From Sacculina carcini (lineage: Eukaryota > Arthropoda > Thecostraca > Sacculinidae), in NCBI GenBank assembly GCA_916048095.2, contig OU696586.1:124001-188000 (forward strand): a DNA stretch of 64,000 nucleotides, given 5' to 3'. The notes beneath the pieces were generated by a model that was given only the letters and a program-made list of their open reading frames with translations, made no database searches and was not told the origin of the DNA. The position numbers were made by a program, and so were the translations under genes. Below, one piece after another: positions 1 to 64,000 of the stretch; the stretch's first letter is position 1; every line of letters begins with the position of its first letter.

Positions 1-2200
1 ACACTTAGGTAACACTTAGGTAACACTTAGGTAACACTTAGGTAACACTTAGGGCACACTTAGTTAACACTTAGGGCACACTTAGGTAACACTTAGGTAA
101 CACTTAGGGCACACTTAGGTAACACTTAGGGCACACTTAGGTAACACTTATGTAACACTTAGGGCACACTTAGGTAACACTTAGGGCACACTTAGGTAAC
201 ACTTAGGTAACACTTAGGGCACACTTATGTAACACTTATGTAACACTTAGGTAACATTTATGTAACACTTAGGTAACACTTAGGGCACACTTAGGTAACA
301 CTTAGGGCACACTTAGGTAACACTTAGGGCACACTTAGGTAACACTTAGGGCACACTTAGGTAACACTTAGGGCACACTTAGGTAACACTTAGGTAACAC
401 TTGAGGCACACTTAGTTAACACTTAGGGCACACTTAGGTAACACTTAGGTAACACTTGAGGCACACTTAGTTAACACTTAGGGCACACTTAGGTAACACT
501 TAGGGCATACTTAGGTAACACTTAGGTAACACTTAGGTAACACTTAGGTAACACTTAGGTAACACTTAGGTAACACTTAGGGTACACTTAGTTAACACTT
601 AGGGCACACTTAGGTAACACTTAGGTAACACTTAGGTAACACTTAGGGCACACTTAGGTAACACTTAGGGCACACTTAGGTAACACTTATGTAACACTTA
701 GGTAACATTTATGTAACACTTAGGTAACACTTAGGTAACACTTAGGTAACACTTAGGTAACACTTAGGGCACACTTAGGTAACACTTAGGGCACACTTAG
801 GTAACACTTAGGTAACACTTGAGGCACACTTAGTTAACACTTAGGGCACACTTAGGTAACACTTAGGGCATACTTAGGTAACACTTAGGTAACACTTAGG
901 TAACACTTAGGTAACACTTAGGTAACACTTAGGTAACACTTAGGGTACACTTAGTTAACACTTAGGGCACACTTAGGTAACACTTAGGTAACACTTAGGT
1001 AACACTTAGGGCACACTTAGGTAACACTTAGGGCACACTTAGGTAACACTTATGTAACACTTAGGTAACATTTATGTAACACTTAGGTAACACTTAGGTA
1101 ACACTTAGGTAACACTTAGGTAACACTTAGGGCACACTTAGGTAACACTTAGGGCACACTTAGGTAACACTTAGGGCACACTTAGGTAACACTTAGGTAA
1201 CACTTAGGTAACACTTAGGTAACACTTAGGTAACACTTAGGGCACACTTAGGGCACACTTAGGTAACACTTAGGTAACACTTAGGTAACACTTAGGTAAC
1301 ACTTGGGTAACACTTAGGTAACACTTAGGTAACACTTATGTAACACTTAGGTAACACTTAGGTAACACTTAGGTAACACTTAGGTAACACTTAGGTAACA
1401 CTTAGGTAACACTTAGGTAACACTTAGGTAACACTTAGGTAACACTTAGGGCACACTTAGGGCACACTTAGGTAACACATATGTAACACTTAGGTAACAC
1501 TTAGGTAACACTTAGGGCACACTTAGGTAACACTTAGGGCACACTTAGGTAACACTTAGGTAACACTTGAGGCACACTTAGGTAACACTTAGGGCACACT
1601 TAGGTAACACTTAGGGCACACTTAGGTAACACTTAGGTAACACTTAGGTAACACTTAGGTAACACTTAGGTAACACTTAGGTAACACTTAGGTAACACTT
1701 AGGTAACACTTAGGGCACACTTAGGTAACACTTAGGGAACACTTAGGTAACACTTAGGTAACACTTAGGTAACACTTAGGGCACACTTAGGTAACACTTA
1801 GGGCACACTTAGGTAACACTTATGTAACACTTAGGTAACATTTATGTAACACTTAGGTAACACTTAGGGCACACTTAGGTAACACTTAGGGCACACTTAG
1901 GCAACACTTAGGGCACACTTAGGTAACACTTAGGGCACACTTAGGTAACACTTAGGGTACACTTAGGTAACACTTAGGTAACACTTAGGGCACACTTAGG
2001 TAACACTTAGGTAACACTTAGGGCACACTTAGGTAACACTTAGGGCACACTTAGGTAACACTTATGTAACACTTAGGTAACATTTATGTAACACTTAGGT
2101 AACACTTAGGTAACACTTAGGTAACACTTAGGTAACACTTAGGGCACACTTAGGTAACACTTAGGGCACACTTAGGTAACACTTAGGTAACACTTGAGGC
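1..2200 (+). repeat. Left segment: mixed monomers with a 363-bp (33-monomer) higher-order unit
   Basis: The CTTGAGGC monomer is a useful block marker here. It recurs at about 401, 456 and 819, and the 456 to 819 interval is exactly 363 bp. The order of variants after 456 (GTTA, GGGC, GGTA, GGGC, ATAC, then a run of canonical monomers) is repeated after 819 and diverges near 1160. A long canonical run with few GGGC monomers follows at about 1190-1450. The stretch 1475-1485 holds ACACATATGTA, seen nowhere else in the window. There are no coding features. Confidence 0.85.
1475..1485 (+). repeat. Private monomer ACACATATGTA
   Basis: A T-to-A change in a TATG monomer creates the palindrome CATATG at 1478-1483. 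I saw no other CATATG in the window. Confidence 0.88.
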
Positions 2201-2556
2201 ACACTTAGTTAACACTTAGGGCACACTTAGGTAACACTTAGGGCACACTTAGGTAACACTTAGGTAACACTTAGGTAACACTTAGGTAACACTTAGGTAA
2301 CACTTAGGTAACACTTAGGGCACACTTAGTTAACACTTAGGGCACACTTAGGTAACACTTAGGTAACACTTAGGTAACACTTAGGGCACACTTAGGTAAC
2401 ACTTAGGGCACACTTAGGTAACACTTATGTAACACTTAGGTAACATTTATGTAACACTTAGGTAACACTTAGGTAACACTTAGGTAACACTTAGGTAACA
2501 CTTAGGGCACACTTAGGTAACACTTAGGGCACACTTAGGTAACACTTAGGTAACAC
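2194..2556 (+). repeat. Representative 363-bp higher-order unit (33 monomers)
   Basis: This is one clear copy of the 33-monomer block, running from one CTTGAGGC marker to the next. In order it holds CTTGAGGC, GTTA, alternating GGGC and GGTA, a canonical run, GGGC-GTTA-GGGC, canonical monomers, GGGC-GGTA-GGGC, then TATG-GGTA-ACATTTATG, canonical monomers and GGGC-GGTA-GGGC. The same 363-bp spacing between markers occurs at 456-819, 6066-6429 and 15664-16027, so it is a recurring building block of the larger units rather than a continuous tandem. Confidence 0.8.
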
Positions 2557-7959: not shown

Positions 7960-10900
7960 AGGGCACACTTAGGTAACACTTAGGTAACACTTAGGTAACA
8001 CTTAGGTAACACTTAGGGCACACTTAGGTAACACTTAGGGCACACTTAGGTAACACTTATGTAACACTTAGGTAACATTCATGTAACACTTAGGTAACAC
8101 TTAGGGCACACTTAGGTAACACTTAGGGCACACTTAGGTAACACTTAGGTAACACTTAGGGCACACTAGGTAACACTTAGGGTACACTTAGGTAACACTT
8201 AGGTAACACTTAGGGCACACTTAGGTAACACTTAGGGCACACTTAGGTAACACTTATGTAACACTTAGGTAACATTTATGTAACACTTAGGTAACACTTA
8301 GGTAACACTTAGGTAACACTTATGTAACACTTAGGGCACACTTAGGTAACACTTAGGGCACACTTAGGTAACACTTAGGTAACACTTGAGGCACACTTAG
8401 TTAACACTTAGGGCACACTTAGGTAACACTTAGGGCATACTTAGGTAACACTTAGGTAACACTTAGGTAACACTTAGGTAACACTTAGGTAACACTTAGG
8501 TAACACTTAGGGTACACTTAGTTAACACTTAGGGCACACTTAGGTAACACTTAGGTAACACTTAGGTAACACTTAGGGCACACTTAGGTAACACTTAGGG
8601 CACACTTAGGTAACACTTATGTAACACTTAGGTAACATTTATGTAACACTTAGGTAACACTTAGGTAATACTTAGGTAACACTTAGGTAACACTTAGGGT
8701 ACACTTAGGTAACACTTAGGGCACACTTAGGTAACACTTAGGGCACACTTAGGTAACACTTAGGTAACACTTAGGTAACACTTAGGTAACACTTAGGTAA
8801 CACTTAGGGCACACTTAGGGCACACTTAGGTAACACTTAGGTAACACTTAGGTAACACTTGGGTAACACTTAGGTAACACTTAGGTAACACTTATGTAAC
8901 ACTTAGGTAACACTTAGGTAACACTTAGGTAACACTTATGTAACACTTAGGTAACACTTAGGTAACACTTAGGGCACACTTAGGTAACACTTAGGGCACA
9001 CTTAGGTAACACTTAGGTAACACTTAGGTAACACTTAGGTAACACTTAGGGCACACTTAGGGCACACTTAGGTAACACTTATGTAACACTTAGGTAACAC
9101 TTAGGTAACACTTAGGGCACACTTAGGTAACACTTAGGGCACACTTAGGTAACACTTAGGTAACACTTGAGGCACACTTAGTTAACACTTAGGGCACACT
9201 TAGGTAACACTTAGGGCATACTTAGGTAACACTTAGGTAACACTTAGGTAACACTTAGGTAACACTTAGGTAACACTTAGGTAACACTTAGGTAACACTT
9301 AGGGCACACTTAGTTAACACTTAGGGAACACTTAGGTAACACTTAGGTAACACTTAGGTAACACTTAGGTAACACTTAGGGCACACTTAGGTAACACTTA
9401 GGGCACACTTAGGTAACACTTATGTAACACTTAGGTAACATTTATGTAACACTTAGGTAACACTTAGGGCACACTTAGGTAACACTTAGGGCACACTTAG
9501 GCAACACTTAGGGCACACTTAGGTAACACTTAGGGCACACTTAGGTAACACTTAGGGTACACTTAGGTAACACTTAGGTAACACTTAGGGCACACTTAGG
9601 TAACACTTAGGTAACACTTAGGGCACACTTAGGTAACACTTAGGGCATACTTAGGTAACACTTATGTAACACTTAGGTAACATTTATGTAACACTTAGGT
9701 AACACTTAGGTAACACTTAGGTAACACTTAGGTAACACTTAGGGCACACTTAGGTAACACTTAGGGCACACTTAGGTAACACTTAGGTAACACTTGAGGC
9801 ACACTTAGTTAACACTTAGGGCACACTTAGGTTACACTTAGGGCATACTTAGGTAACACTTAGGTAACACTTAGGTAACACTTAGGTAACACTTAGGTAA
9901 CACTTAGGTAACACTTAGGTAACACTTAGGGCACACTTAGTTAACACTTAGGGCACACTTAGGTAACACTTAGGTAACACTTAGGTAACACTTAGGGCAC
10001 ACTTAGGTAACACTTAGGGCACACTTAGGGCACACTTAGGTAACACTTAGGGCACACTTAGGTAACACTTAGGTAACACTTGGGTAACACTTAGGTAACA
10101 CTTAGGTAACACTTATGTAACACTTAGGTAACACTTAGGTAACACTTAGGTAACACTTAGGTAACACTTAGGTAACACTTAGGGCACACTTAGTTAACAC
10201 TTAGGGAACACTTAGGTAACACTTAGGTAACACTTAGGTAACACTTAGGGCACACTTAGGTAACACTTAGGGCACACTTAGGTAACACTTATGTAACACT
10301 TAGGTAACATTTATGTAACACTTAGGTAACACTTAGGGCACACTTAGGTAACACTTAGGGCACACTTAGGCAACACTTAGGGCACACTTAGGTAACACTT
10401 AGGGCACACTTAGGTAACACTTAGGGTACACTTAGGTAACACTTAGGTAACACTTAGGGCACACTTAGGTAACACTTAGGGCACACTTAGGTAACACTTA
10501 TGTAACACTTAGGTAACATTTATGTAACACTTAGGTAACACTTAGGTAACACTTAGGGTACACTTAGGTAACACTTAGGTAACACTTAGGTAACACTTAG
10601 GTAACACTTAGGTAACACTTAGGTAACACTTAGGTAACACTTAGGTAAGACTTAGGTAACACTTAGGTAACACTTAGGGTACACTTAGGTAACACTTAGG
10701 GTACACTTAGGTAACACTTGGGTAACACTTAGGTAACACTTGGGACACACTTAGGTAACACTTAGGTAACACTTAGGTAACACTTAGGTAACACTTAGGG
10801 CACACTTAGGTAACACTTAGGGCACACTTAGGTAACACTTATGTAACACTTAGGTAACATTCATGTAACACTTAGGTAACACTTAGGGCACACTTAGGTA

Positions 10901-11745
10901 ACACTTAGGGCACACTTAGGTAACACTTAGGTAACACTTAGGGCACACTAGGTAACACTTAGGGTACACTTAGGTAACACTTAGGTAACACTTAGGGCAC
11001 ACTTAGGTAACACTTAGGGCACACTTAGGTAACACTTATGTAACACTTAGGTAACATTTATGTAACACTTAGGTAACACTTAGGTAACACTTAGGTAACA
11101 CTTAGGTAACACTTAGGGCACACTTAGGTAACACTTAGGGCACACTTAGGTAACACTTAGGTAACACTTGAGGCACACTTAGTTAACACTTAGGGCACAC
11201 TTAGGTAACACTTAGGGCATACTTAGGTAACACTTAGGTAACACTTAGGTAACACTTAGGTAACACTTAGGTAACACTTAGGTAACACTTAGGGTACACT
11301 TAGTTAACACTTAGGGCACACTTAGGTAACACTTAGGTAACACTTAGGTAACACTTAGGTAACACTTAGGTAACACTTAGGGTACACTTAGGGCACACTT
11401 AGGTAACACTTAGGGCACACTTAGGTAACACTTATGTAACACTTAGGTAACATTCATGTAACACTTAGGTAACACTTAGGGCACACTTAGGTAACACTTA
11501 GGGCACACTTAGGTAACACTTAGGTAACACTTAGGGCACACTTAGGGCACACTTAGGCAACACTTAGGGCACACTTAGGTAACACTTAGGGCACACTTAG
11601 GTAACACTTAGGGTACACTTAGGTAACACTTAGGTAACACTTAGGGCACACTTAGGTAACACTTAGGGCACACTTAGGTAACATTTATGTAACACTTAGG
11701 TAACATTTATGTAACACTTAGGTAACACTTAGGTAACACTTAGGG
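7960..11745 (+). repeat. Segment present three times (also 17.28-21.07 and 23.88-27.67 kb)
   Basis: This 3.8 kb block is repeated at offsets of 9,323 bp and 15,920 bp. It holds the 10-bp monomers at 8163 and 10945, 2,782 bp apart; the same 2,782-bp interval separates 17486 from 20268 and 24083 from 26865. Other shared markers are ATACTTAGGTA after a canonical monomer (8668, 17991, 24588), several CTTGGG monomers and AGACTTAGGTA (10648, 19971, 26568). I noted single-base differences from the 23.88 kb copy at 8323 (T versus G), 9833 (T versus A) and 11684 (T versus C). Similarity to that copy ends near 11745. Confidence 0.88.
9823..9833 (+). repeat. Private monomer ACACTTAGGTT
   Basis: The last base of a canonical monomer is T instead of A (position 9833). 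The duplicate at 25753 has A, so the change came after that duplication or was lost from the other copy. Confidence 0.85.
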
Positions 11746-14178
11746 TACACTTAGGTAACACTTAGGTAACACTTAGGTAACACTTAGGTAACACTTAGGT
11801 AACACTTAGGTAACACTTAGGTAACACTTAGGTAAGACTTAGGTAACACTTAGGTAACACTTAGGGTACACTTAGGTAACACTTAGGGTACACTTAGGTA
11901 ACACTTGGGTAACACTTAGGTAACACTTGGGACACACTTAGGTAACACTTAGGTAACACTTAGGTAACACTTAGGTAACACTTAGGGCACACTTAGGTAA
12001 CACTTAGGGCACACTTAGGTAACACTTATGTAACACTTAGGTAACATTCATGTAACACTTAGGTAACACTTAGGGCACACTTAGGTAACACTTAGGGCAC
12101 ACTTAGGTAACACTTAGGTAACACTTAGGGCACACTAGGTAACACTTAGGGCACACTTAGGTAACACTTATGTAACACTTAGGTAACATTTATGTAACAC
12201 TTAGGTAACACTTAGGTAACACTTAGGTAACACTTAGGTAACACTTAGGGCACACTTAGGTAACACTTAGGGCACACTTAGGTAACACTTAGGTAACACT
12301 TGAGGCACACTTAGTTAACACTTAGGGCACACTTAGGTAACACTTAGGGCATACTTAGGTAACACTTAGGTAACACTTAGGTAACACTTAGGTAACACTT
12401 AGGTAACACTTAGGTAACACTTAGGGTACACTTAGTTAACACTTAGGGCACACTTAGGTAACACTTAGGTAACACTTAGGTAACACTTAGGGCACACTTA
12501 GGTAACACTTAGGGCACACTTAGGTAACACTTAGGGCACACTTAGGTAACACTTAGGGCACACTTAGGTAACACTTAGGTAACACTTAGGGCACACTAGG
12601 TAACACTTAGGGTACACTTAGGTAACACTTAGGTAACACTTAGGGCACACTTAGGTAACACTTAGGGCACACTTAGGTAACACTTATGTAACACTTAGGT
12701 AACATTTATGTAACACTTAGGTAACACTTAGGTAACACTTAGGTAACACTTAGGTAACACTTAGGGCACACTTAGGTAACACTTAGGGCACACTTAGGTA
12801 ACACTTAGGTAACACTTGAGGCACACTTAGTTAACACTTAGGGCACACTTAGGTAACACTTAGGGCATACTTAGGTAACACTTAGGTAACACTTAGGTAA
12901 CACTTAGGTAACACTTAGGTAACACTTAGGTAACACTTAGGGTACACTTAGTTAACACTTAGGGCACACTTAGGTAACACTTAGGTAACACTTAGGTAAC
13001 ACTTAGGTAACACTTAGGTAACACTTAGGGTACACTTAGGGCACACTTAGGTAACACTTAGGGCACACTTAGGTAACACTTATGTAACACTTAGGTAACA
13101 TTCATGTAACACTTAGGTAACACTTAGGGCACACTTAGGTAACACTTAGGGCACACTTAGGTAACACTTAGGTAACACTTAGGGCACACTTAGGGCACAC
13201 TTAGGCAACACTTAGGGCACACTTAGGTAACACTTAGGGCACACTTAGGTAACACTTAGGGTACACTTAGGTAACACTTAGGTAACACTTAGGGCACACT
13301 TAGGTAACACTTAGGGCACACTTAGGTAACACTTATGTAACACTTAGGTAACATTTATGTAACACTTAGGTAACACTTAGGTAACACTTAGGGTACACTT
13401 AGGTAACACTTAGGTAACACTTAGGTAACACTTAGGTAACACTTAGGTAACACTTAGGTAACACTTAGGTAACACTTAGGTAAGACTTAGGTAACACTTA
13501 GGTAACACTTAGGGTACACTTAGGTAACACTTAGGGTACACTTAGGTAACACTTGGGTAACACTTAGGTAACACTTGGGACACACTTAGGTAACACTTAG
13601 GTAACACTTAGGTAACACTTAGGTAACACTTAGGGCACACTTAGGTAACACTTAGGGCACACTTAGGTAACACTTATGTAACACTTAGGTAACATTCATG
13701 TAACACTTAGGTAACACTTAGGGCACACTTAGGTAACACTTAGGGCACACTTAGGTAACACTTAGGTAACACTTAGGGCACACTAGGTAACACTTAGGGC
13801 ACACTTAGGTAACACTTATGTAACACTTAGGTAACATTTATGTAACACTTAGGTAACACTTAGGTAACACTTAGGTAACACTTAGGTAACACTTAGGGCA
13901 CACTTAGGTAACACTTAGGGCACACTTAGGTAACACTTAGGTAACACTTGAGGCACACTTAGTTAACACTTAGGGCACACTTAGGTAACACTTAGGGCAT
14001 ACTTAGGTAACACTTAGGTAACACTTAGGTAACACTTAGGTAACACTTAGGTAACACTTAGGTAACACTTAGGGTACACTTAGTTAACACTTAGGGCACA
14101 CTTAGGTAACACTTAGGTAACACTTAGGTAACACTTAGGGCACACTTAGGTAACACTTAGGGCACACTTAGGTAACAC
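10875..14178 (+). repeat. Tandem 1,648-bp unit (150 monomers), two copies
   Basis: Two adjacent copies lie at about 10875-12525 and 12525-14178. Paired markers 1,648 bp apart are the 10-bp monomers (10945 with 12593, 12132 with 13780), AGACTTAGGTA (11835 with 13483) and the GGGT-GGGC junction near 11381 and 13029. The value 1,648 is 150 monomers less two single-base deletions per period. Similarity begins near 10875/12518 and ends near 12530/14178, so the copies abut. The second copy and its right flank to 14850 recur at 31.4-33.7 kb. Confidence 0.9.
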
Positions 14179-14850
14179 TTATGTAACACTTAGGTAACAT
14201 TTATGTAACACTTAGGTAACACTTAGGTAACACTTAGGTAACACTTAGGTAACACTTAGGGCACACTTAGGTAACACTTAGGGCACACTTAGGTAACACT
14301 TAGGGCACACTTAGGTAACACTTAGGTAACATTTAGGTAACACTTAGGTAACACTTAGGTAACACTTAGGGCACACTTAGGGCACACTTAGGTAACACTT
14401 AGGTAACACTTAGGTAACACTTAGGTAACACTTGGGTAACACTTAGGTAACACTTAGGTAACACTTATGTAACACTTAGGTAACACTTAGGTAACACTTA
14501 GGTAACACTTAGGTAACACTTAGGTAACACTTAGGTAACACTTAGGTAACACTTAGGTAACACTTAGGTAACACTTAGGGCACACTTAGGGCACACTTAG
14601 GTAACACTTATGTAACACTTAGGTAACACTTAGGTAACACTTAGGGCACACTTAGGTAACACTTAGGGCACACTTAGGTAACACTTAGGTAACACTTGAG
14701 GCACACTTAGTTAACACTTAGGGCACACTTAGGTAACACTTAGGGCATACTTAGGTAACACTTAGGTAACACTTAGGTAACACTTAGGTAACACTTAGGT
14801 AACACTTAGGTAACACTTAGGTAACACTTAGGTAACACTTAGGTAACACT
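12518..14850 (+). repeat. Segmental duplicate B (second copy at 31.41-33.74 kb)
   Basis: This 2.3 kb block matches 31408-33740 at a constant offset of 18,890 bp (1,718 monomers less eight deletions). The 10-bp monomers at 12593 and 13780 match 31483 and 32670, keeping their 1,187-bp spacing. The rare ACATTTAGGTA monomer at 14329 matches 33219; I found it nowhere else. Similarity starts at the junction of the two 1,648-bp copies and fails near 14854, where this copy turns to GGGC while the other continues canonical. Confidence 0.88.
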
Positions 14851-17378
14851 TAGGGCACACTTAGGTAACACTTAGGGCACACTTAGGTAACACTTATGTA
14901 ACACTTAGGTAACATTCATGTAACACTTAGGTAACACTTAGGTAACACTTAGGTAACACTTAGGTAACACTTAGGGCACACTTAGGTAACACTTAGGTAA
15001 CACTTGAGGCACACTTAGTTAACACTTAGGGCACACTTAGGTAACACTTAGGGCATACTTAGGTAACACTTAGGTAACACTTAGGTAACACTTAGGTAAC
15101 ACTTAGGTAACACTTAGGTAACACTTAGGTAACACTTAGGTAACACTTAGGGTACACTTAGTTAACACTTAGGGCACACTTAGGTAACACTTAGGTAACA
15201 CTTAGGGTACACTTAGTTAACACTTAGGGCACACTTAGGTAACACTTAGTTAACACTTAGGGTACACTTAGGTAACACTTAGGTAACACTTAGGTAACAC
15301 TTAGGTAACACTTAGGTAACACTTAGGTAAGACTTAGGTAACACTTAGGTAACACTTAGGGTACACTTAGGTAACACTTAGGGTACACTTAGGTAACACT
15401 TAGGTAACACTTAGGTAACACTTAGGACACACTTAGGTAACACTTAGGTAACACTTAGGTAACACTTAGGTAACACTTAGGGCACACTTAGGTAACACTT
15501 AGGGCACACTTAGGTAACACTTATGTAACACTTAGGTAACATTCATGTAACACTTAGGTAACACTTAGGGCACACTTAGGTAACACTTAGGGCACACTTA
15601 GGTAACACTTAGGGCACACTTAGGTAACACTTAGGTAACACTTAGGTAACACTTAGGTAACACTTGAGGCACACTTAGTTAACACTTAGGGCACACTTAG
15701 GTAACACTTAGGGCATACTTAGGTAACACTTAGGTAACACTTAGGTAACACTTAGGTAACACTTAGGTAACACTTAGGTAACACTTAGGGCACACTTAGT
15801 TAACACTTAGGGCACACTTAGGTAACACTTAGGTAACACTTAGGTAACACTTAGGGCACACTTAGGTAACACTTAGGGCACACTTAGGTAACACTTATGT
15901 AACACTTAGGTAACATTTATGTAACACTTAGGTAACACTTAGGTAACACTTAGGTAACACTTAGGTAACACTTAGGGCACACTTAGGTAACACTTAGGGC
16001 ACACTTAGGTAACACTTAGGTAACACTTGAGGCACACTTAGTTAACACTTAGGGCACACTTAGGTAACACTTAGGGCATACTTAGGTAACACTTAGGTAA
16101 CACTTAGGTAACACTTAGGTAACACTTAGGTAACACTTAGGTAACACTTAGGTAACACTTAGGGCACACTTAGTTAACACTTAGGGCACACTTAGGTAAC
16201 ACTTAGGTAACACTTAGGGCACACTTAGGTAACACTTAGGGCACACTTAGGTAACACTTAGGGTACACTTAGGTAACACTTAGGTAACACTTAGGGCACA
16301 CTTAGGTAACACTTAGGGCACACTTAGGTAACACTTATGTAACACTTAGGTAACATTTATGTAACACTTAGGTAACACTTAGGTAACACTTAGGTAACAC
16401 TTAGGTAACACTTAGGGCACACTTAGGTAACACTTAGGGCACACTTAGGTAACACTTAGGTAACACTTGAGGCACACTTAGTTAACACTTAGGGTACACT
16501 TAGTTAACACTTAGGGCACACTTAGGTAACACTTAGGTAACACTTAGGGCACACTTAGGTAACACTTAGGGCACACTTAGGTAACACTTATGTAACACTT
16601 AGGTAACATTTATGTAACACTTAGGTAACACTTAGGTAACACTTAGGTAACACTTAGGTAACACTTAGGGCACACTTAGGTAACACTTAGGGCATACTTA
16701 GGTAACACTTAGGGCACACTTAGGTAACACTTAGGGCACACTTAGGTAACACTTAGGGCACACTTAGGTAACACTTAGGGCACACTTAGGTAACACTTAG
16801 GTAACACTTGAGGCACACTTAGTTAACACTTAGGGTACACTTAGTTAACACTTAGGGCACACTTAGGTAACACTTAGGTAACACTTAGGGCACACTTAGG
16901 TAACACTTAGGGCACACTTAGGTAACACTTATGTAACACTTAGGTAACATTTATGTAACACTTAGGTAACACTTAGGTAACACTTAGGTAAGACTTAGGT
17001 AACACTTAGGTAACACTTAGGGTACACTTAGGTAACACTTAGGGTACACTTAGGTAACACTTAGGTAACACTTAGGGCACACTTAGGTAACACTTAGGGC
17101 ACACTTAGGTAACACTTATGTAACACTTAGGTAACATTCATGTAACACTTAGGTAACACTTAGGGCACACTTAGGTAACACTTAGGGCACACTTAGGTAA
17201 CACTTAGGTAACACTTAGGGCACACTTAGGCAACACTTAGGGCACACTTAGGTAACACTTAGGGTACACTTAGGTAACACTTAGGTAACACTTAGGGCAC
17301 ACTTAGGTAACACTTAGGTAACACTTAGGTAACACTTAGGGCACACTTAGGTAACACTTAGGGCACACTTAGGTAACA
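14820..17378 (+). repeat. Second copy of segmental duplicate A
   Basis: This block copies 5.2-7.8 kb at an offset of 9,598 bp. It starts where duplicate B ends (about 14,820-14,850) and runs into the first 6,597-bp unit, whose left edge is near 17080. CTTGAGGC markers lie at 15004, 15664, 16027 and 16467, and AGACTTAGGTA at 15330 and 16991. It contains no 10-bp monomer, in line with its likely source left of 8 kb. Confidence 0.85.
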
Positions 17379-23300: not shown

Positions 23301-23700
23301 AACACTTAGGGCACACTTAGGTAACACTTAGGTAACACTTAGGTAACACTTAGGTAACACTTAGGGCACACTTAGGGCACACTTAGGTAACACTTATGTA
23401 ACACTTAGGTAACACTTAGGTAACACTTAGGGCACACTTAGGTAACACTTAGGGCACACTTAGGTAACACTTAGGTAACACTTGAGGCACACTTAGTTAA
23501 CACTTAGGGCACACTTAGGTAACACTTAGGGCATACTTAGGTAACACTTAGGTAACACTTAGGTAACACTTAGGTAACACTTAGGTAACACTTAGGTAAC
23601 ACTTAGGTAACACTTAGGGCACACTTAGTTAACACTTAGGGAACACTTAGGTAACACTTAGGTAACACTTAGGTAACACTTAGGTAACACTTAGGGCACA
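17080..23700 (+). repeat. 6,597-bp higher-order unit, copy 1 (600 monomers)
   Basis: This is the left member of the largest tandem duplication in the window. Marker pairs at exactly 6,597 bp are the GGCA monomer (C at 17231 and 23828), 10-bp monomers (17486/24083, 20268/26865, 22478/29075), ATACTTAGGTA after a canonical monomer (17991/24588, 22983/29580) and AGACTTAGGTA (19971/26568, 21708/28305). The value 6,597 is 600 monomers less three deletions. Similarity starts near 17080/23677 and ends near 23710/30307, so the two copies abut. Substitutions seen between copies include 21093 T versus C, 21212 C versus T and 22500 T versus C; I noticed only a few in total. Confidence 0.92.
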
Positions 23701-45039: not shown

Positions 45040-48000
45040 GGCATACTTAGGTAACACTTAGGTAACACTTAGGTAACACTTAGGTAACACTTAGGTAACA
45101 CTTAGGTAACACTTAGGGCACACTTAGTTAACACTTAGGGCACACTTAGGTAACACTTAGGTAACACTTAGGTAACACTTAGGGCACACTTAGGTAACAC
45201 TTAGGGCACACTTAGGTAACACTTATGTAACACTTAGGTAACATTTATGTAACACTTAGGTAACACTTAGGTAACACTTAGGTAACACTTAGGTAACACT
45301 TAGGGCACACTTAGGTAACACTTAGGGCACACTTAGGTAACACTTAGGTAACACTTGAGGCACACTTAGTTAACACTTAGGGCACACTTAGGTAACACTT
45401 AGGGCATACTTAGGTAACACTTAGGTAACACTTAGGTAACACTTAGGTAACACTTAGGTAACACTTAGGTAACACTTAGGTAACACTTAGGGCACACTTA
45501 GTTAACACTTAGGGCACACTTAGGTAACACTTAGGTAACACTTAGGGCACACTTAGGTAACACTTAGGGCACACTTAGGTAACACTTATGTAACACTTAG
45601 GGCACACTTAGGTAACACTTAGGGCATACTTAGGTAACACTTAGGTAACACTTAGGGCACACTTATGTAACACTTATGTAACACTTAGGTAACATTTATG
45701 TAACACTTAGGTAACACTTAGGGCACACTTAGGTAACACTTAGGGCACACTTAGGTAACACTTAGGGCACACTTAGGTAACACTTAGGGCACACTTAGGT
45801 AACACTTAGGGCACACTTAGGTAACACTTAGGTAACACTTGAGGCACAATTAGTTAACACTTAGGGCACACTTAGGTAACACTTAGGGCATACTTAGGTA
45901 ACACTTAGGTAACACTTAGGTAACACTTAGGTAACACTTAGGTAACACTTAGGGCACACTTAGGTAACACTTAGGTAACACTTGAGGCACACTTAGTTAA
46001 CACTTAGGGCACACTTAGGTAACACTTAGGGCATACTTAGGTAACACTTAGGTAACACTTAGGTAACACTTAGGTAACACTTAGGTAACACTTAGGTAAC
46101 ACTTAGGTAACACTTAGGTAACACTTAGGGTACACTTAGTTAACACTTAGGGCACACTTAGGTAACACTTAGGTAACACTTAGGGTACACTTAGTTAACA
46201 CTTAGGGCACACTTAGGTAACACTTAGTTAACACTTAGGGTACACTTAGGTAACACTTAGGTAACACTTAGGTAACACTTAGGTAACACTTAGGTAACAC
46301 TTAGGTAAGACTTAGGTAACACTTAGGTAACACTTAGGGTACACTTAGGTAACACTTAGGGTACACTTAGGTAACACTTAGGTAACACTTAGGTAACACT
46401 TAGGACACACTTAGGTAACACTTAGGTAACACTTAGGTAACACTTAGGTAACACTTAGGGCACACTTAGGTAACACTTAGGGCACACTTAGGTAACACTT
46501 ATGTAACACTTAGGTAACATTCATGTAACACTTAGGTAACACTTAGGGCACACTTAGGTAACACTTAGGGCACACTTAGGTAACACTTAGGGCATACTTA
46601 GGTAACACTTAGGTAACACTTAGGTAACACTTAGGTAACACTTAGGTAACACTTAGGTAACACTTAGGTAACACTTAGGGCACACTTAGTTAACACTTAG
46701 GGCACACTTAGGTAACACTTAGGTAACACTTAGGTAACACTTAGGGCACACTTAGGTAACACTTAGGGCACACTTAGGTAACACTTATGTAACACTTAGG
46801 TAACATTTATGTAACACTTAGGTAACACTTAGGTAACACTTAGGTAACACTTAGGTAACACTTAGGGCACACTTAGGTAACACTTAGGGCACACTTAGGT
46901 AACACTTAGGTAACACTTGAGGCACACTTAGTTAACACTTAGGGCACACTTAGGTAACACTTAGGGCATACTTAGGTAACACTTAGGTAACACTTAGGTA
47001 ACACTTAGGTAACACTTAGGTAACACTTAGGTAACACTTAGGTAACACTTAGGGCACACTTAGTTAACACTTAGGGCACACTTAGGTAACACTTAGGTAA
47101 CACTTAGGGCACACTTAGGTAACACTTAGGGCACACTTAGGTAACACTTATGTAACACTTAGGGCACACTTAGGTAACACTTAGGGCATACTTAGGTAAC
47201 ACTTAGGTAACACTTAGGGCACACTTATGTAACACTTATGTAACACTTAGGTAACATTTATGTAACACTTAGGTAACACTTAGGGCACACTTAGGTAACA
47301 CTTAGGGCACACTTAGGTAACACTTAGGGCACACTTAGGTAACACTTAGGGCACACTTAGGTAACACTTAGGGCACACTTAGGTAACACTTAGGTAACAC
47401 TTGAGGCACAATTAGTTAACACTTAGGGCACACTTAGGTAACACTTAGGGCATACTTAGGTAACACTTAGGTAACACTTAGGTAACACTTAGGTAACACT
47501 TAGGTAACACTTAGGGCACACTTAGGTAACACTTAGGTAACACTTGAGGCACACTTAGTTAACACTTAGGGCACACTTAGGTAACACTTAGGGCATACTT
47601 AGGTAACACTTAGGTAACACTTAGGTAACACTTAGGTAACACTTAGGTAACACTTAGGTAACACTTAGGTAACACTTAGGTAACACTTAGGGTACACTTA
47701 GTTAACACTTAGGGCACACTTAGGTAACACTTAGGTAACACTTAGGGTACACTTAGTTAACACTTAGGGCACACTTAGGTAACACTTAGTTAACACTTAG
47801 GGTACACTTAGGTAACACTTAGGTAACACTTAGGTAACACTTAGGTAACACTTAGGTAACACTTAGGTAAGACTTAGGTAACACTTAGGTAACACTTAGG
47901 GTACACTTAGGTAACACTTAGGGTACACTTAGGTAACACTTAGGTAACACTTAGGTAACACTTAGGACACACTTAGGTAACACTTAGGTAACACTTAGGT

Positions 48001-48152
48001 AACACTTAGGTAACACTTAGGGCACACTTAGGTAACACTTAGGGCACACTTAGGTAACACTTATGTAACACTTAGGTAACATTCATGTAACACTTAGGTA
48101 ACACTTAGGGCACACTTAGGTAACACTTAGGGCACACTTAGGTAACACTTGA
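45040..48152 (+). repeat. Tandem 1,562-bp higher-order repeat (142 monomers), two copies
   Basis: Adjacent copies lie at about 45040-46590 and 46590-48152. Pairs 1,562 bp apart are CTTGAGGC (45355/46917), ACATTTATG (45241/46803), TATG (45587/47149), ACAATTAGTTA (45846/47408) and AGACTTAGGTA (46308/47870). Only the GGGCAT junction at 45041/46592 is 1,551 bp apart, a one-monomer difference in a canonical run. After 48152 the second copy turns into a CTTGAGGC block where the first has GGGCAT. Confidence 0.9.
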
Positions 48153-49750
48153 GGCACACTTAGTTAACACTTAGGGCACACTTAGGTAACACTTAGGGCA
48201 TACTTAGGTAACACTTAGGTAACACTTAGGTAACACTTAGGTAACACTTAGGTAACACTTAGGTAACACTTAGGGCACACTTAGTTAACACTTAGGGCAC
48301 ACTTAGGTAACACTTAGGTAACACTTAGGTAACACTTAGGGCACACTTAGGTAACACTTAGGGCACACTTAGGTAACACTTATGTAACACTTAGGTAACA
48401 TTTATGTAACACTTAGGTAACACTTAGGTAACACTTAGGTAACACTTAGGTAACACTTAGGGCACACTTAGGTAACACTTAGGGCACACTTAGGTAACAC
48501 TTAGGTAACACTTGAGGCACACTTAGTTAACACTTAGGGCACACTTAGGTAACACTTAGGGCACACTTAGGTAACACTTAGGTAACACTTAGGTAACACT
48601 TAGGTAACACTTAGGTAACACTTAGGTAACACTTAGGTAACACTTAGGGCACACTTAGTTAACACTTAGGGCACACTTAGGTAACACTTAGGTAACACTT
48701 AGGGCACACTTAGGTAACACTTAGGGCACACTTAGGTAACACTTATGTAACACTTAGGGCACACTTAGGTAACACTTAGGGCATACTTAGGTAACACTTA
48801 GGTAACACTTAGGGCACACTTATGTAACACTTATGTAACACTTAGGTAACATTTATGTAACACTTAGGTAACACTTAGGGCACACTTAGGTAACACTTAG
48901 GGCACACTTAGGTAACACTTAGGGCACACTTAGGTAACACTTAGGGCACACTTAGGTAACACTTAGGGCACACTTAGGTAACACTTAGGTAACACTTGAG
49001 GCACAATTAGTTAACACTTAGGGCACACTTAGGTAACACTTAGGGCATACTTAGGTAACACTTAGGTAACACTTAGGTAACACTTAGGTAACACTTAGGT
49101 AACACTTAGGGCACACTTAGGTAACACTTAGGTAACACTTGAGGCACACTTAGTTAACACTTAGGGCACACTTAGGTAACACTTAGGGCATACTTAGGTA
49201 ACACTTAGGTAACACTTAGGTAACACTTAGGTAACACTTAGGTAACACTTAGGTAACACTTAGGTAACACTTAGGTAACACTTAGGGTACACTTAGTTAA
49301 CACTTAGGGCACACTTAGGTAACACTTAGGTAACACTTAGGGTACACTTAGTTAACACTTAGGGCACACTTAGGTAACACTTAGTTAACACTTAGGGTAC
49401 ACTTAGGTAACACTTAGGTAACACTTAGGTAACACTTAGGTAACACTTAGGTAACACTTAGGTAAGACTTAGGTAACACTTAGGTAACACTTAGGGTACA
49501 CTTAGGTAACACTTAGGGTACACTTAGGTAACACTTAGGTAACACTTAGGTAACACTTAGGACACACTTAGGTAACACTTAGGTAACACTTAGGTAACAC
49601 TTAGGTAACACTTAGGGCACACTTAGGTAACACTTAGGGCACACTTAGGTAACACTTATGTAACACTTAGGTAACATTCATGTAACACTTAGGTAACACT
49701 TAGGGCACACTTAGGTAACACTTAGGGCACACTTAGGTAACACTTAGGGC
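48152..49750 (+). repeat. Third copy of the ~1.56-kb higher-order repeat, three monomers longer
   Basis: ACAATTAGTTA at 49003 and AGACTTAGGTA at 49465 lie 1,595 bp (145 monomers) after their partners at 47408 and 47870, and the internal 462-bp spacing is kept. The unit length therefore changes only outside the ACAATTAG-to-AGAC core. Confidence 0.83.
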
Positions 49751-56456: not shown

Positions 56457-59400
56457 GGGCACACTTAGGTAACACTTAGGTAACACTTAGGTAACACTTA
56501 GGGCACACTTAGGTAACACTTAGGGCACACTTAGGTAACACTTAGGTAACACTTGAGGCACACTTAGTTAACACTTAGGGCACACTTAGGTAACACTTAG
56601 GGCATACTTAGGTAACACTTAGGTAACACTTAGGTAACACTTAGGTAACACTTAGGTAACACTTAGGTAACACTTAGGGCACACTTAGGTAACACTTAGG
56701 GCACACTTAGGTAACACTTATGTAACACTTAGGGCACACTTAGGTAACACTTAGGGCACACTTAGGTAACACTTAGGTAACACTTAGGGCACACTTATGT
56801 AACACTTATGTAACACTTAGGTAACATTTATGTAACACTTAGGTAACACTTGAGGCACACTTAGTTAACACTTAGGGCACACTTAGGTAACACTTAGGGC
56901 ATACTTAGGTAACACTTAGGTAACACTTAGGTAACACTTAGGTAACACTTAGGGCACACTTAGTTAACACTTAGGGCACACTTAGGTAACACTTAGGTAA
57001 CACTTAGGGCACACTTAGGTAACACTTAGGGCACACTTAGGTAACACTTATGTAACACTTAGGGCACACTTAGGTAACACTTAGGGCATACTTAGGTAAC
57101 ACTTAGGTAACACTTAGGGCACACTTATGTAACACTTATGTAACACTTAGGTAACATTTATGTAACACTTAGGTAACACTTGAGGCACACTTAGTTAACA
57201 CTTAGGGCACACTTAGGTAACACTTAGGGCATACTTAGGTAACACTTAGGTAACACTTAGGTAACACTTAGGTAACACTTAGGTAACACTTAGGTAACAC
57301 TTAGGTAACACTTAGGTAACACTTAGGGTACACTTAGTTAACACTTAGGGCACACTTAGGTAACACTTAGGTAACACTTAGGGTACACTTAGTTAACACT
57401 TAGGGCACACTTAGGTAACACTTAGTTAACACTTAGGGTACACTTAGGTAACACTTAGGTAACACTTAGGTAACACTTAGGTAACACTTAGGTAACACTT
57501 AGGTAAGACTTAGGTAACACTTAGGTAACACTTAGGGTACACTTAGGTAACACTTAGGGTACACTTAGGTAACACTTAGGTAACACTTAGGTAACACTTA
57601 GGACACACTTAGGTAACACTTAGGTAACACTTAGGTAACACTTAGGTAACACTTAGGGCACACTTAGGTAACACTTAGGGCACACTTAGGTAACACTTAT
57701 GTAACACTTAGGTAACATTCATGTAACACTTAGGTAACACTTAGGGCACACTTAGGTAACACTTAGGGCACACTTAGGTAACACTTAGGGCATACTTAGG
57801 TAACACTTAGGTAACACTTAGGTAACACTTAGGTAACACTTAGGTAACACTTAGGTAACACTTAGGTAACACTTAGGGCACACTTAGTTAACACTTAGGG
57901 CACACTTAGGTAACACTTAGGTAACACTTAGGTAACACTTAGGGCACACTTAGGTAACACTTAGGGCACACTTAGGTAACACTTATGTAACACTTAGGTA
58001 ACATTTATGTAACACTTAGGTAACACTTAGGTAACACTTAGGTAACACTTAGGTAACACTTAGGGCACACTTAGGTAACACTTAGGGCACACTTAGGTAA
58101 CACTTAGGTAACACTTGAGGCACACTTAGTTAACACTTAGGGCACACTTAGGTAACACTTAGGGCATACTTAGGTAACACTTAGGTAACACTTAGGTAAC
58201 ACTTAGGTAACACTTAGGTAACACTTAGGTAACACTTAGGTAACACTTAGGGCACACTTAGTTAACACTTAGGGCACACTTAGGTAACACTTAGGTAACA
58301 CTTAGGGCACACTTAGGTAACACTTAGGGCACACTTAGGTAACACTTATGTAACACTTAGGGCACACTTAGGTAACACTTAGGGCATACTTAGGTAACAC
58401 TTAGGTAACACTTAGGTAACACTTATGTAACACTTATGTAACACTTAGGTAACATTTATGTAACACTTAGGTAACACTTAGGGCACACTTAGGTAACACT
58501 TAGGGCACACTTAGGTAACACTTAGGGCACACTTAGGTAACACTTAGGGCACACTTAGGTAACACTTAGGGCACACTTAGGTAACACTTAGGTAACACTT
58601 GAGGCACAATTAGTTAACACTTAGGGCACACTTAGGTAACACTTAGGGCATACTTAGGTAACACTTAGGTAACACTTAGGTAACACTTAGGTAACACTTA
58701 GGTAACACTTAGGTAACACTTAGGTAACACTTAGGGCACACTTAGTTAACACTTAGGGCACACTTAGGTAACACTTAGGTAACACTTAGGGCACACTTAG
58801 GTAACACTTAGGGCACACTTAGGTAACACTTATGTAACACTTAGGGCACACTTAGGTAACACTTAGGGCATACTTAGGTAACACTTAGGTAACACTTAGG
58901 GCACACTTATGTAACACTTATGTAACACTTAGGTAACATTTATGTAACACTTAGGTAACACTTAGGGCACACTTAGGTAACACTTAGGGCACACTTAGGT
59001 AACACTTAGGGCACACTTAGGTAACACTTAGGGCACACTTAGGTAACACTTAGGGCACACTTAGGTAACACTTAGGTAACACTTGAGGCACAATTAGTTA
59101 ACACTTAGGGCACACTTAGGTAACACTTAGGGCATACTTAGGTAACACTTAGGTAACACTTAGGTAACACTTAGGTAACACTTAGGTAACACTTAGGGCA
59201 CACTTAGGTAACACTTAGGTAACACTTGAGGCACACTTAGTTAACACTTAGGGCACACTTAGGTAACACTTAGGGCATACTTAGGTAACACTTAGGTAAC
59301 ACTTAGGTAACACTTAGGTAACACTTAGGTAACACTTAGGTAACACTTAGGTAACACTTAGGTAACACTTAGGGTACACTTAGTTAACACTTAGGGCACA

Positions 59401-60064
59401 CTTAGGTAACACTTAGGTAACACTTAGGGTACACTTAGTTAACACTTAGGGCACACTTAGGTAACACTTAGTTAACACTTAGGGTACACTTAGGTAACAC
59501 TTAGGTAACACTTAGGTAACACTTAGGTAACACTTAGGTAACACTTAGGTAAGACTTAGGTAACACTTAGGTAACACTTAGGGTACACTTAGGTAACACT
59601 TAGGGTACACTTAGGTAACACTTAGGTAACACTTAGGTAACACTTAGGACACACTTAGGTAACACTTAGGTAACACTTAGGTAACACTTAGGTAACACTT
59701 AGGGCACACTTAGGTAACACTTAGGGCACACTTAGGTAACACTTATGTAACACTTAGGTAACATTCATGTAACACTTAGGTAACACTTAGGGCACACTTA
59801 GGTAACACTTAGGGCACACTTAGGTAACACTTAGGGCATACTTAGGTAACACTTAGGTAACACTTAGGTAACACTTAGGTAACACTTAGGTAACACTTAG
59901 GTAACACTTAGGTAACACTTAGGGCACACTTAGTTAACACTTAGGGCACACTTAGGTAACACTTAGGTAACACTTAGGTAACACTTAGGGCACACTTAGG
60001 TAACACTTAGGGCACACTTAGGTAACACTTATGTAACACTTAGGTAACATTTATGTAACACTTA
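56457..60064 (+). repeat. 3,608-bp higher-order unit, copy 1 (328 monomers)
   Basis: Marker pairs at exactly 3,608 bp are AGACTTAGGTA (57506/61114, 59552/63160) and ACAATTAGTTA (58606/62214, 59090/62698). Similarity starts near 56457/60065, so the copies abut. The unit contains the 484-bp ACAATTAG pair and the 462-bp ACAATTAG-to-AGAC core. One visible difference is near 56759, where this copy has GGGCAC and the other GGGCAT. Confidence 0.9.
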
Positions 60065-63000
60065 GGTAACACTTAGGTAACACTTAGGTAACACTTAGGT
60101 AACACTTAGGGCACACTTAGGTAACACTTAGGGCACACTTAGGTAACACTTAGGTAACACTTGAGGCACACTTAGTTAACACTTAGGGCACACTTAGGTA
60201 ACACTTAGGGCATACTTAGGTAACACTTAGGTAACACTTAGGTAACACTTAGGTAACACTTAGGTAACACTTAGGTAACACTTAGGGCACACTTAGGTAA
60301 CACTTAGGGCACACTTAGGTAACACTTATGTAACACTTAGGGCACACTTAGGTAACACTTAGGGCATACTTAGGTAACACTTAGGTAACACTTAGGGCAC
60401 ACTTATGTAACACTTATGTAACACTTAGGTAACATTTATGTAACACTTAGGTAACACTTGAGGCACACTTAGTTAACACTTAGGGCACACTTAGGTAACA
60501 CTTAGGGCATACTTAGGTAACACTTAGGTAACACTTAGGTAACACTTAGGTAACACTTAGGGCACACTTAGTTAACACTTAGGGCACACTTAGGTAACAC
60601 TTAGGTAACACTTAGGGCACACTTAGGTAACACTTAGGGCACACTTAGGTAACACTTATGTAACACTTAGGGCACACTTAGGTAACACTTAGGGCATACT
60701 TAGGTAACACTTAGGTAACACTTAGGGCACACTTATGTAACACTTATGTAACACTTAGGTAACATTTATGTAACACTTAGGTAACACTTGAGGCACACTT
60801 AGTTAACACTTAGGGCACACTTAGGTAACACTTAGGGCATACTTAGGTAACACTTAGGTAACACTTAGGTAACACTTAGGTAACACTTAGGTAACACTTA
60901 GGTAACACTTAGGTAACACTTAGGTAACACTTAGGGTACACTTAGTTAACACTTAGGGCACACTTAGGTAACACTTAGGTAACACTTAGGGTACACTTAG
61001 TTAACACTTAGGGCACACTTAGGTAACACTTAGTTAACACTTAGGGTACACTTAGGTAACACTTAGGTAACACTTAGGTAACACTTAGGTAACACTTAGG
61101 TAACACTTAGGTAAGACTTAGGTAACACTTAGGTAACACTTAGGGTACACTTAGGTAACACTTAGGGTACACTTAGGTAACACTTAGGTAACACTTAGGT
61201 AACACTTAGGACACACTTAGGTAACACTTAGGTAACACTTAGGTAACACTTAGGTAACACTTAGGGCACACTTAGGTAACACTTAGGGCACACTTAGGTA
61301 ACACTTATGTAACACTTAGGTAACATTCATGTAACACTTAGGTAACACTTAGGGCACACTTAGGTAACACTTAGGGCACACTTAGGTAACACTTAGGGCA
61401 TACTTAGGTAACACTTAGGTAACACTTAGGTAACACTTAGGTAACACTTAGGTAACACTTAGGTAACACTTAGGTAACACTTAGGGCACACTTAGTTAAC
61501 ACTTAGGGCACACTTAGGTAACACTTAGGTAACACTTAGGTAACACTTAGGGCACACTTAGGTAACACTTAGGGCACACTTAGGTAACACTTATGTAACA
61601 CTTAGGTAACATTTATGTAACACTTAGGTAACACTTAGGTAACACTTAGGTAACACTTAGGTAACACTTAGGGCACACTTAGGTAACACTTAGGGCACAC
61701 TTAGGTAACACTTAGGTAACACTTGAGGCACACTTAGTTAACACTTAGGGCACACTTAGGTAACACTTAGGGCATACTTAGGTAACACTTAGGTAACACT
61801 TAGGTAACACTTAGGTAACACTTAGGTAACACTTAGGTAACACTTAGGTAACACTTAGGGCACACTTAGTTAACACTTAGGGCACACTTAGGTAACACTT
61901 AGGTAACACTTAGGGCACACTTAGGTAACACTTAGGGCACACTTAGGTAACACTTATGTAACACTTAGGGCACACTTAGGTAACACTTAGGGCATACTTA
62001 GGTAACACTTAGGTAACACTTAGGGCACACTTATGTAACACTTATGTAACACTTAGGTAACATTTATGTAACACTTAGGTAACACTTAGGGCACACTTAG
62101 GTAACACTTAGGGCACACTTAGGTAACACTTAGGGCACACTTAGGTAACACTTAGGGCACACTTAGGTAACACTTAGGGCACACTTAGGTAACACTTAGG
62201 TAACACTTGAGGCACAATTAGTTAACACTTAGGGCACACTTAGGTAACACTTAGGGCACACTTAGGTAACACTTAGGTAACACTTAGGTAACACTTAGGT
62301 AACACTTAGGTAACACTTAGGTAACACTTAGGTAACACTTAGGGCACACTTAGTTAACACTTAGGGCACACTTAGGTAACACTTAGGTAACACTTAGGGC
62401 ACACTTAGGTAACACTTAGGGCACACTTAGGTAACACTTATGTAACACTTAGGGCACACTTAGGTAACACTTAGGGCATACTTAGGTAACACTTAGGTAA
62501 CACTTAGGGCACACTTATGTAACACTTATGTAACACTTAGGTAACATTTATGTAACACTTAGGTAACACTTAGGGCACACTTAGGTAACACTTAGGGCAC
62601 ACTTAGGTAACACTTAGGGCACACTTAGGTAACACTTAGGGCACACTTAGGTAACACTTAGGGCACACTTAGGTAACACTTAGGTAACACTTGAGGCACA
62701 ATTAGTTAACACTTAGGGCACACTTAGGTAACACTTAGGGCATACTTAGGTAACACTTAGGTAACACTTAGGTAACACTTAGGTAACACTTAGGTAACAC
62801 TTAGGGCACACTTAGGTAACACTTAGGTAACACTTGAGGCACACTTAGTTAACACTTAGGGCACACTTAGGTAACACTTAGGGCATACTTAGGTAACACT
62901 TAGGTAACACTTAGGTAACACTTAGGTAACACTTAGGTAACACTTAGGTAACACTTAGGTAACACTTAGGTAACACTTAGGGTACACTTAGTTAACACTT

Positions 63001-63894
63001 AGGGCACACTTAGGTAACACTTAGGTAACACTTAGGGTACACTTAGTTAACACTTAGGGCACACTTAGGTAACACTTAGTTAACACTTAGGGTACACTTA
63101 GGTAACACTTAGGTAACACTTAGGTAACACTTAGGTAACACTTAGGTAACACTTAGGTAAGACTTAGGTAACACTTAGGTAACACTTAGGGTACACTTAG
63201 GTAACACTTAGGGTACACTTAGGTAACACTTAGGTAACACTTAGGTAACACTTAGGACACACTTAGGTAACACTTAGGTAACACTTAGGTAACACTTAGG
63301 TAACACTTAGGGCACACTTAGGTAACACTTAGGGCACACTTAGGTAACACTTATGTAACACTTAGGTAACATTCATGTAACACTTAGGTAACACTTAGGG
63401 CACACTTAGGTAACACTTAGGGCACACTTAGGTAACACTTAGGGCATACTTAGGTAACACTTAGGTAACACTTAGGTAACACTTAGGTAACACTTAGGTA
63501 ACACTTAGGTAACACTTAGGTAACACTTAGGGCACACTTAGTTAACACTTAGGGCACACTTAGGTAACACTTAGGTAACACTTAGGTAACACTTAGGGCA
63601 CACTTAGGTAACACTTAGGGCACACTTAGGTAACACTTATGTAACACTTAGGTAACATTTATGTAACACTTAGGTAACACTTAGGTAACACTTAGGTAAC
63701 ACTTAGGTAACACTTAGGGCACACTTAGGTAACACTTAGGGCACACTTAGGTAACACTTAGGTAACACTTGAGGCACACTTAGTTAACACTTAGGGCACA
63801 CTTAGGTAACACTTAGGGCATACTTAGGTAACACTTAGGTAACACTTAGGTAACACTTAGGTAACACTTAGGTAACACTTAGGTAACACTTAGG
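60065..63894 (+). repeat. 3,608-bp higher-order unit, copy 2, extending slightly past one period
   Basis: This copy repeats 56457 onward in the same order and continues to match until about 63894 (partner 60286), about 220 bp beyond one full period. The extension shows that the register of the duplication is arbitrary with respect to block markers. After 63894 the sequence has GGTA where the partner has GGGC, and the window ends 106 bp later still inside the array. Confidence 0.9.
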
Positions 63895-64000
63895 TAACAC
63901 TTAGGGCACACTTAGTTAACACTTAGGGCACACTTAGGTAACACTTAGGTAACACTTAGGGCACACTTAGGTAACACTTAGGGCACACTTAGGTAACACT

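What the first reader, a model, noticed from the sequence alone, without database searches (positions are those of the whole stretch)
1..64000. 64 kb of pure 11-bp satellite with multi-level higher-order structure
Seen: one 11-bp monomer type fills the whole window, one orientation, no insertion. Its variants are arranged into nested periods of about 363, 627, 1,562, 1,648, 3,608 and 6,597 bp. Known: higher-order repeats are best described for primate alpha satellite with ~171-bp monomers. Inference: a monomer as short as 11 bp with units of up to 600 monomers is unusual, and this may be an undescribed centromeric or heterochromatic satellite of its host.
Basis: partly seen in the sequence, partly recalled or inferred. 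Interest (0 to 1): 0.7.

Follow-up and report, generated by a model that had tools for sequence, protein, structure and literature searches.

The report
Chromosome-end 11-bp satellite of an arthropod
The window is the middle of a roughly 360-kb block of an 11-letter repeat found at many chromosome ends of an unnamed arthropod, in places just inside the true telomere; no description of it turned up, but it is of a familiar kind and is probably not a centromere.

Summary
All 64 kb is one 11-bp satellite in one orientation: 5,819 monomers, only 24 variants. The "higher-order structure" is real but irregular: 96% of monomers lie in duplicated blocks, yet no period runs through the array; 1,562, 1,648, 3,608 and 6,597 bp are four local tandem duplications.

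The window is C21:124001-188000 of a 264-Mb genome with arthropod-type TTAGG telomeres. The satellite is subtelomeric. On C4, C11 and C18 it lies directly inside the telomere. It is at, or next to the telomere of, 20 of 56 ends of the 28 large contigs (6 other ends read N). A 68-bp satellite with short dyads forms one region on each of 19 chromosomes, away from the 11-bp arrays on all 11 where both were seen; it is the better centromere candidate.

Rarer variants are largely chromosome-specific, with C21 and C36 sharing a set. Best reading: a recently amplified subtelomeric satellite, homogenised by local unequal exchange, whose TTAGG core may let telomerase cap broken arrays. No description was found in the listings seen. 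New member of a known kind.

The parts
1..64000 (+). Uninterrupted 11-bp satellite array (ACACTTAGGTA / ACACTTAGGGC and 22 rarer variants); middle part of an array seen in probes from C21:1 to about 360,650
   Evidence: extent from probes
17079..30305 (+). Largest tandem duplication: 603 monomers (6,630 bp) with its copy at 23,676 (offset 6,597 bp), 99.3% of monomers identical; holds an exact repeat of 365 monomers
56461..63885 (+). Tandem duplication of 347 monomers, offset 3,608 bp, 99.1% of monomers identical
10868..14180 (+). Tandem duplication, offset about 1,650 bp (1,648 with the 10-bp monomers), 99.3% of monomers identical; end coordinate approximate
45054..49740 (+). Successive tandem duplications with offsets 1,562 and 1,595 bp; end coordinate approximate
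8163..35901 (+). Span of the 14 ten-base monomers ACACTAGGTA, which shift the register and account for periods not divisible by 11

Best explanation
This is a subtelomeric (telomere-associated) satellite family of a non-model arthropod. Shown: arrays from about 1 kb to about 437 kb lie at many chromosome ends, directly inside the TTAGG telomere on the three ends where both were read; sampled arrays differ in their rarer variants; the window is a mosaic of recent near-identical duplications up to 6.6 kb; two retrotransposons were seen inserted in arrays. Inferred: the arrays grow and are homogenised by repeated unequal exchange or out-of-register break repair within one chromosome end, with rare transfer between ends (C21 and C36). 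Inferred, less sure: the TTAGG inside the common monomers gives telomerase a primer, so a chromosome broken in an outward-facing array can be re-capped without a seam.
For: Position: C4 array from 11,518,493 (satellite in all seven probes from 11.60 to 11.955 Mb) to the junction at 11,955,808, then telomere to the contig end; C18 array of about 1.2 kb from 9,477,530, then telomere; C11 array, satellite in probes from 9,500,001 and up to about 9,657,100, then telomere. Seventeen further large-contig ends terminate inside the satellite. Mosaic: 161 block pairs, 96% of monomers in a block. Local homogenisation: the longest string shared with the window is 856, 1,273 and 2,486 bp for three other C21 pieces of 8-10 kb, against 133 bp for a 10-kb C30 piece, 152 bp for a C43 piece and 218 bp for a 10-kb C36 piece. 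A 42-bp C21 variant motif has 1,084 exact genome hits; the list, in contig order, starts on C21, so none lie on C1-C20. Healing: at C4 and C18 the switch reads ...CACAC|TTAGG|TTAGG with no extra base.
Against: The C11 junction is not seamless (...CTTAGGTA|AGGTTAGG), so 2 of 3, and the C4/C18 junction form was the search pattern itself. Of 9 telomere-bearing ends, 5 (C7 start, both C9 ends, C26 end, C35 end) showed no 11-bp satellite in the stretches read and C19 start runs into N; on C9 the telomere abuts other DNA at both ends, so the satellite is not needed at every end. An 11-mer holds TTAGG by chance about 2% of the time. Six of 17 satellite termini point the telomere-like strand inward (C11, C21, C23 starts; C16, C22, C29 ends). 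Twenty of 56 ends read as other DNA. No chromatin, FISH or telomerase data.
Confidence: 0.82

Rival explanations
1. Centromeric satellite: the arrays at contig ends are centromeres of telocentric chromosomes at which the assembly breaks.
For: Seventeen of 56 large-contig ends finish in the array; large homogeneous arrays are typical of centromeres.
Against: Arrays lie between other DNA and telomere on C4 and C18 and directly inside the telomere on C11; C11, C15 and C30 carry it at both ends; the 68-bp satellite forms one region per chromosome, interior on C1, C2, C7, C10, C11, C12, C15, C19, C20, C25, C26, C29 and C37. Telocentric centromeres close to the telomere cannot be excluded by sequence alone.
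Confidence: 0.06
2. A recombination-maintained alternative or back-up telomere: long 11-bp arrays themselves protect ends that lack TTAGG, as long satellites are thought to do in lower Diptera (PMC8122249, passages read).
For: Seventeen large-contig ends finish in the array with no TTAGG beyond; the window shows heavy local exchange.
Against: Where the assembly runs through (C4, C11, C18) a TTAGG telomere follows; the other ends may just be assembly breaks.
Confidence: 0.07
3. Assembly artefact: long-read assembly or scaffolding produced the array structure and placed satellite contigs at scaffold ends.
For: The + to - switch on C21 lies exactly at a 200-N gap, 252,968-253,167, so the orientation and place of the outer 253 kb, which holds the window, rest on scaffolding.
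Against: The satellite-telomere junctions on C4, C11 and C18 and the satellite-interior edges on C4 and C18 were read without N. The C21 array on the inner side of the gap carries the same rare variants.
Confidence: 0.05

Closest known systems
Subtelomeric satellites directly attached to telomeres (tobacco HRS60, Silene X43.1; reviewed in PMC9498494, passages read)
   Same: Tandem arrays at chromosome ends; direct attachment to the telomere repeat.
   Different: Much shorter monomer here (11 bp; the lengths of the plant units are recalled); the monomer contains the host telomere repeat TTAGG; the host is an arthropod.
Human satellites 2 and 3, including DYZ1 (PMC4022460, passages read)
   Same: Very short ancestral unit (CATTC) built into kilobase units and chromosome-specific subfamilies; many subfamilies lack a clean ring-like period.
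   Different: Human HSat2,3 lie next to centromeres or on Yq; here the arrays are subtelomeric and the longest units are isolated duplications.
Long satellite ends of lower Diptera (PMC8122249, passages read)
   Same: Tandem satellite at chromosome ends, with unequal exchange as the proposed engine.
   Different: Here TTAGG telomeres lie beyond the satellite on the three ends where the sequence runs through.
Alpha-satellite higher-order repeats (recalled)
   Same: Variants of a short monomer are copied in multi-monomer blocks.
   Different: No array-wide period; monomer 11 bp rather than about 171 bp; not at the candidate centromeres.

Membership tests
Subtelomeric (telomere-associated) satellite | Tandem array lying between other chromosome DNA and the telomere | tested here: met
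   C4 and C18 with both edges read, C11 with the telomere edge read
Subtelomeric (telomere-associated) satellite | Present on several non-homologous chromosome ends | tested here: met
   20 of 56 ends of the 28 large contigs, 6 of the 56 reading N
Subtelomeric (telomere-associated) satellite | Cytological terminal location, heterochromatin | not testable with these tools
   Needs FISH and chromatin profiling
Telomeric repeat proper | Forms the extreme chromosome end and is made by telomerase | tested here: not met
   TTAGG lies distal to it on C4, C11 and C18; telomerase synthesis not testable
Centromeric satellite | One array per chromosome at the primary constriction | tested here: not met
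   Both ends on C11, C15 and C30; the 68-bp satellite has the one-per-chromosome pattern; constrictions themselves not visible in sequence
Centromeric satellite | CENH3 nucleosomes | not testable with these tools
   Needs ChIP or CUT&RUN
Regular higher-order-repeat satellite | Array-wide multimeric period with near-identical consecutive units | tested here: not met
   Best lag matches 0.141 of rare monomers; 10 different best lags in 11 sub-windows
Human HSat2/3-like short-unit satellite | Kilobase blocks built from a unit shorter than about 12 bp, with chromosome-specific variants | tested here: met
   (resemblance in organisation only; no sequence relation)

The most novel reading that the evidence does not exclude
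The satellite is a self-renewing chromosome-end buffer tied to telomerase. Its common monomers carry the TTAGG telomere unit, so a break inside an outward-facing array ends at or near a ready telomerase primer and is re-capped; short telomere tracts left inside arrays are then copied along with the satellite. Subtelomere turnover and telomere healing would be one coupled process in this lineage.
Probability: 0.2. Interest if true: 0.6.

Novelty: new member of a known kind. Interest (0 to 1): 0.35.

Why it matters
It gives a long assembled example of a very short-unit subtelomeric satellite with some of its telomere junctions, and shows that kilobase duplication mosaics need not mean a centromere. 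The TTAGG core and the seamless junctions make telomere healing in an arthropod testable with long reads. The 68-bp satellite is a concrete centromere candidate for the same genome.

Tried and rejected
Array-wide higher-order repeat: rejected from autocorrelation and local scans. Centromere: rejected on position. Satellite made from retrotransposon 3' tails: considered because the C2 copy of the element ends in an A-rich run, 13 monomers and another A-rich run; the C21 copy ends in plain poly-A inside the array, so the C2 tail reads better as transduced satellite. Conserved outward orientation of all arrays: 11 of 17 contig termini are outward, not enough to claim. Host species: not identified. 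No COX1 match, no exact match to a conserved 18S 30-mer, two searches of papers for the chromosome lengths found no genome note in what was listed (0 papers; 12 of 19 listed), and a 31-bp satellite pattern is absent from the prokaryote and viral contig collections. 94 chitin-binding R&R matches support an arthropod. No match to the insect odorant-receptor family was found, but that search rang in no control genome. Three subject searches of papers gave no description of this satellite in their listings (1 paper; 12 of 61; 10 of 87).

Full report
What was checked. The window is C21:124001-188000 of a 264,436,087-base genome in 43 contigs, of which 28 are 6.3 to 14.9 Mb long. Dynamic-programming parsing gives 5,819 monomers in one orientation, 5,805 of 11 bp and 14 of 10 bp, with 24 sequence types, five of them seen once. 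The satellite is there at C21 position 1 and its last monomers lie near 360,650. Within that span one retrotransposon (240,077 to about 246,206) and one 200-N gap (252,968-253,167), where the strand changes from + to -, were seen; the stretches between probes were not read.

Higher-order structure. On rare monomers, lags of 600, 142 and 328 monomers stand out (0.141, 0.107, 0.095; maximum 0.051 in one shuffled copy). Exact repeats of 60 or more monomers cover 86% of monomers, against 0 in one shuffled copy and one Markov copy each of order 1, 3 and 5; at 30 monomers the order-5 copy reaches 23% against 96%. The longest exact repeat is 365 monomers. Allowing mismatches, 161 block pairs cover 96% of monomers. 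The largest pair is a tandem duplication of 603 monomers at 17,079 and 23,676 with 99.3% of monomers identical. Eleven sub-windows give 10 different best lags. So the array is a mosaic of recent duplications of different lengths, not a regular higher-order repeat.

Where it lies. I read 400 bp to 10 kb at both ends of all 28 large contigs. The 11-bp satellite is at 8 starts (C11, C15, C20, C21, C23, C26, C30, C37) and 9 ends (C8, C10, C12, C15, C16, C22, C29, C30, C36). TTAGG telomere is at 3 starts (C7, C9, C19) and 6 ends (C4, C9, C11, C18, C26, C35). Six starts read N, 4 starts are the 68-bp repeat (C36 by one partial unit only), and the other 20 are other DNA. Inside the telomere, the satellite is present on C4 (11,518,493 to 11,955,81x), C18 (9,477,530 to 9,478,76x) and C11 (probes from 9,500,001, up to about 9,657,100). 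That makes 20 of 56 ends. It was not seen near the telomere at C7 start, C9 start, C9 end, C26 end or C35 end (on C26 and C35 the 2.8 kb next to the telomere were not fully read), and C19 start runs into N. Of the 15 small contigs, 5 begin with the satellite: C27, C28, C39, C42 and C43; 2 begin with N. Exact dimers number 133,839. At the density of five of six sampled pieces (two of them on C21) this suggests 4.7 to 6.9 Mb, or about 2% of the genome; the C30 piece, poor in that dimer, would give 20 Mb.

Telomere junctions. C4 and C18 switch from ...CACACTTAGG straight into perfect TTAGG; C11 switches at ...CTTAGGTA|AGGTTAGG. The pattern ACACTTAGG(TTAGG)3 occurs six times in the genome: C4, C18, C16 (9,197,717), C37 (43,576) and twice on C43. 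On C16 and C37 the TTAGG tract is short and followed by other DNA. On C43 two identical 30-bp tracts sit inside the array 3,435 bp apart, so telomere repeats are copied together with satellite. These look like old or repaired ends; that is inference.

Local homogenisation. Over all 204 loci fetched, ACATTTATGTA and ACACTTGAGGC occur on C21 (both sides of the gap) and C36 only; ACATTCATGTA on C21 only; ACACTTAGTTA also on C4, C10, C18, C30 and C37 at low frequency (and once in non-satellite DNA of C6); ACACTTATGTA also on C12, C23, C27, C28, C37 and C43. A 42-bp motif built on these variants has 884 forward and 200 reverse exact hits; the list, in contig order and cut at 100, begins on C21, so none are on C1-C20, and a 10-kb C36 piece holds 13. 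The longest string shared with the window is 856 to 2,486 bp for three other C21 pieces, 218 bp for C36, and 133 and 152 bp for C30 and C43. So exchange is mostly within one chromosome end, with some transfer between C21 and C36.

Retrotransposons in the array. A 6.1-kb non-LTR element with a poly-A tail sits in the C21 array about 52 kb beyond the window; a copy on C2 is 98.1% identical over 5,883 bp, and the C2 copy encodes an endonuclease and a reverse transcriptase ("L1-like" is my label by eye). The C2 copy is followed by an A-rich run, 13 monomers and a second A-rich run, which suggests read-through of a copy that lay in a satellite array, followed by insertion on C2 (inference). A second element with a reverse transcriptase interrupts the C43 array.

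Candidate centromere repeat. A 68-bp satellite with two 16-bp imperfect dyads was located with two exact 68-mers, 22 and 74 hits, on 17 of the 28 large contigs; contig-start reads add C35 and C36, 19 in all. On each it lies in one region (up to 0.56 Mb wide on C25), interior on 13. On all 11 chromosomes where both satellites were seen (C10, C11, C12, C15, C20, C22, C23, C26, C29, C36, C37) they are in different places; C36 rests on the partial unit. Nine chromosomes gave no hit, and exact-match searches miss diverged copies.

Host. TTAGG telomeres and 94 chitin-binding R&R matches indicate an arthropod. Odorant-receptor family 7tm_6 gave none, but no control rang, so non-insect is only suggested. 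The species was not identified.

Known or new. Searches of open-licence full text for all 22 rotations found no satellite of this sequence in the listings (13 of 13, 20 of 36, 15 of 15 and 25 of 27 papers shown). Passages of four papers were read. Attached subtelomeric satellites and kilobase units built from pentamers are both described, so this is a new member of a known kind; its own features are the TTAGG-bearing 11-bp unit and the seamless junctions.

Limits. The outer 253 kb of C21, including the window, is joined to the chromosome across a gap, so its orientation and terminal place rest on scaffolding; the same rare variants on the inner side of the gap support the placement. Function, chromatin state and telomerase healing are untested.

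Noticed in passing
L026 (C22:1-10000); C1 8.98 Mb, C2 8.46, C7 7.64, C10 6.30, C11 2.95-3.10, C12 5.17, C15 4.82, C19 3.25, C20 4.59, C25 3.71-4.27, C26 3.95, C29 3.28, C37 2.09 Mb: A 68-bp satellite with two 16-bp imperfect dyads, one region per chromosome where seen: likely centromeric repeat.
   Followed up: partly
C21:240077-246206 (L109, L129); C2:9621440-9628111 (L130, L024): A 6.1-kb non-LTR element inside the satellite; its C2 copy ends in an A-rich run, 13 satellite monomers and another A-rich run, as if satellite had been transduced.
   Followed up: partly
C43:about 6840-11676 (L028, L131): A second element with a reverse transcriptase inserted in the 11-bp array.
   Followed up: partly
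L167 (C18 near 9.477 Mb), L174-L176 (C26 end), L141 (C16 near 9.197 Mb): A 43-bp tandem repeat (TTTCAATTATATCAGTGTGAGATATGTAACATTTGTACTAGTG) recurs near satellite or telomere at three chromosome ends.
   Followed up: no
C21 near 360.7 kb (L166) and C4 near 11.518 Mb (L025): The inner edges of two satellite arrays abut similar AT-rich sequence (AAAATTTTGGTCAATATTC...), perhaps a shared subtelomeric element.
   Followed up: no
C12:5185001 (L162), C10:6310001 (L164), C23 end (L074), C31 end (L080): A 9-bp (GAAAATAAA)n repeat lies within about 10 to 100 kb of 68-bp satellite hits.
   Followed up: no
C30:335968-429085 (L146, L147): A cluster of 20 near-equal-scoring cuticle-protein (R&R) domain matches in 93 kb.
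   Followed up: no
C7:1-2000 (L018): Start of C7 is degenerate CCTAA repeat followed by a long reading frame that looks like a reverse transcriptase by eye.
   Followed up: no
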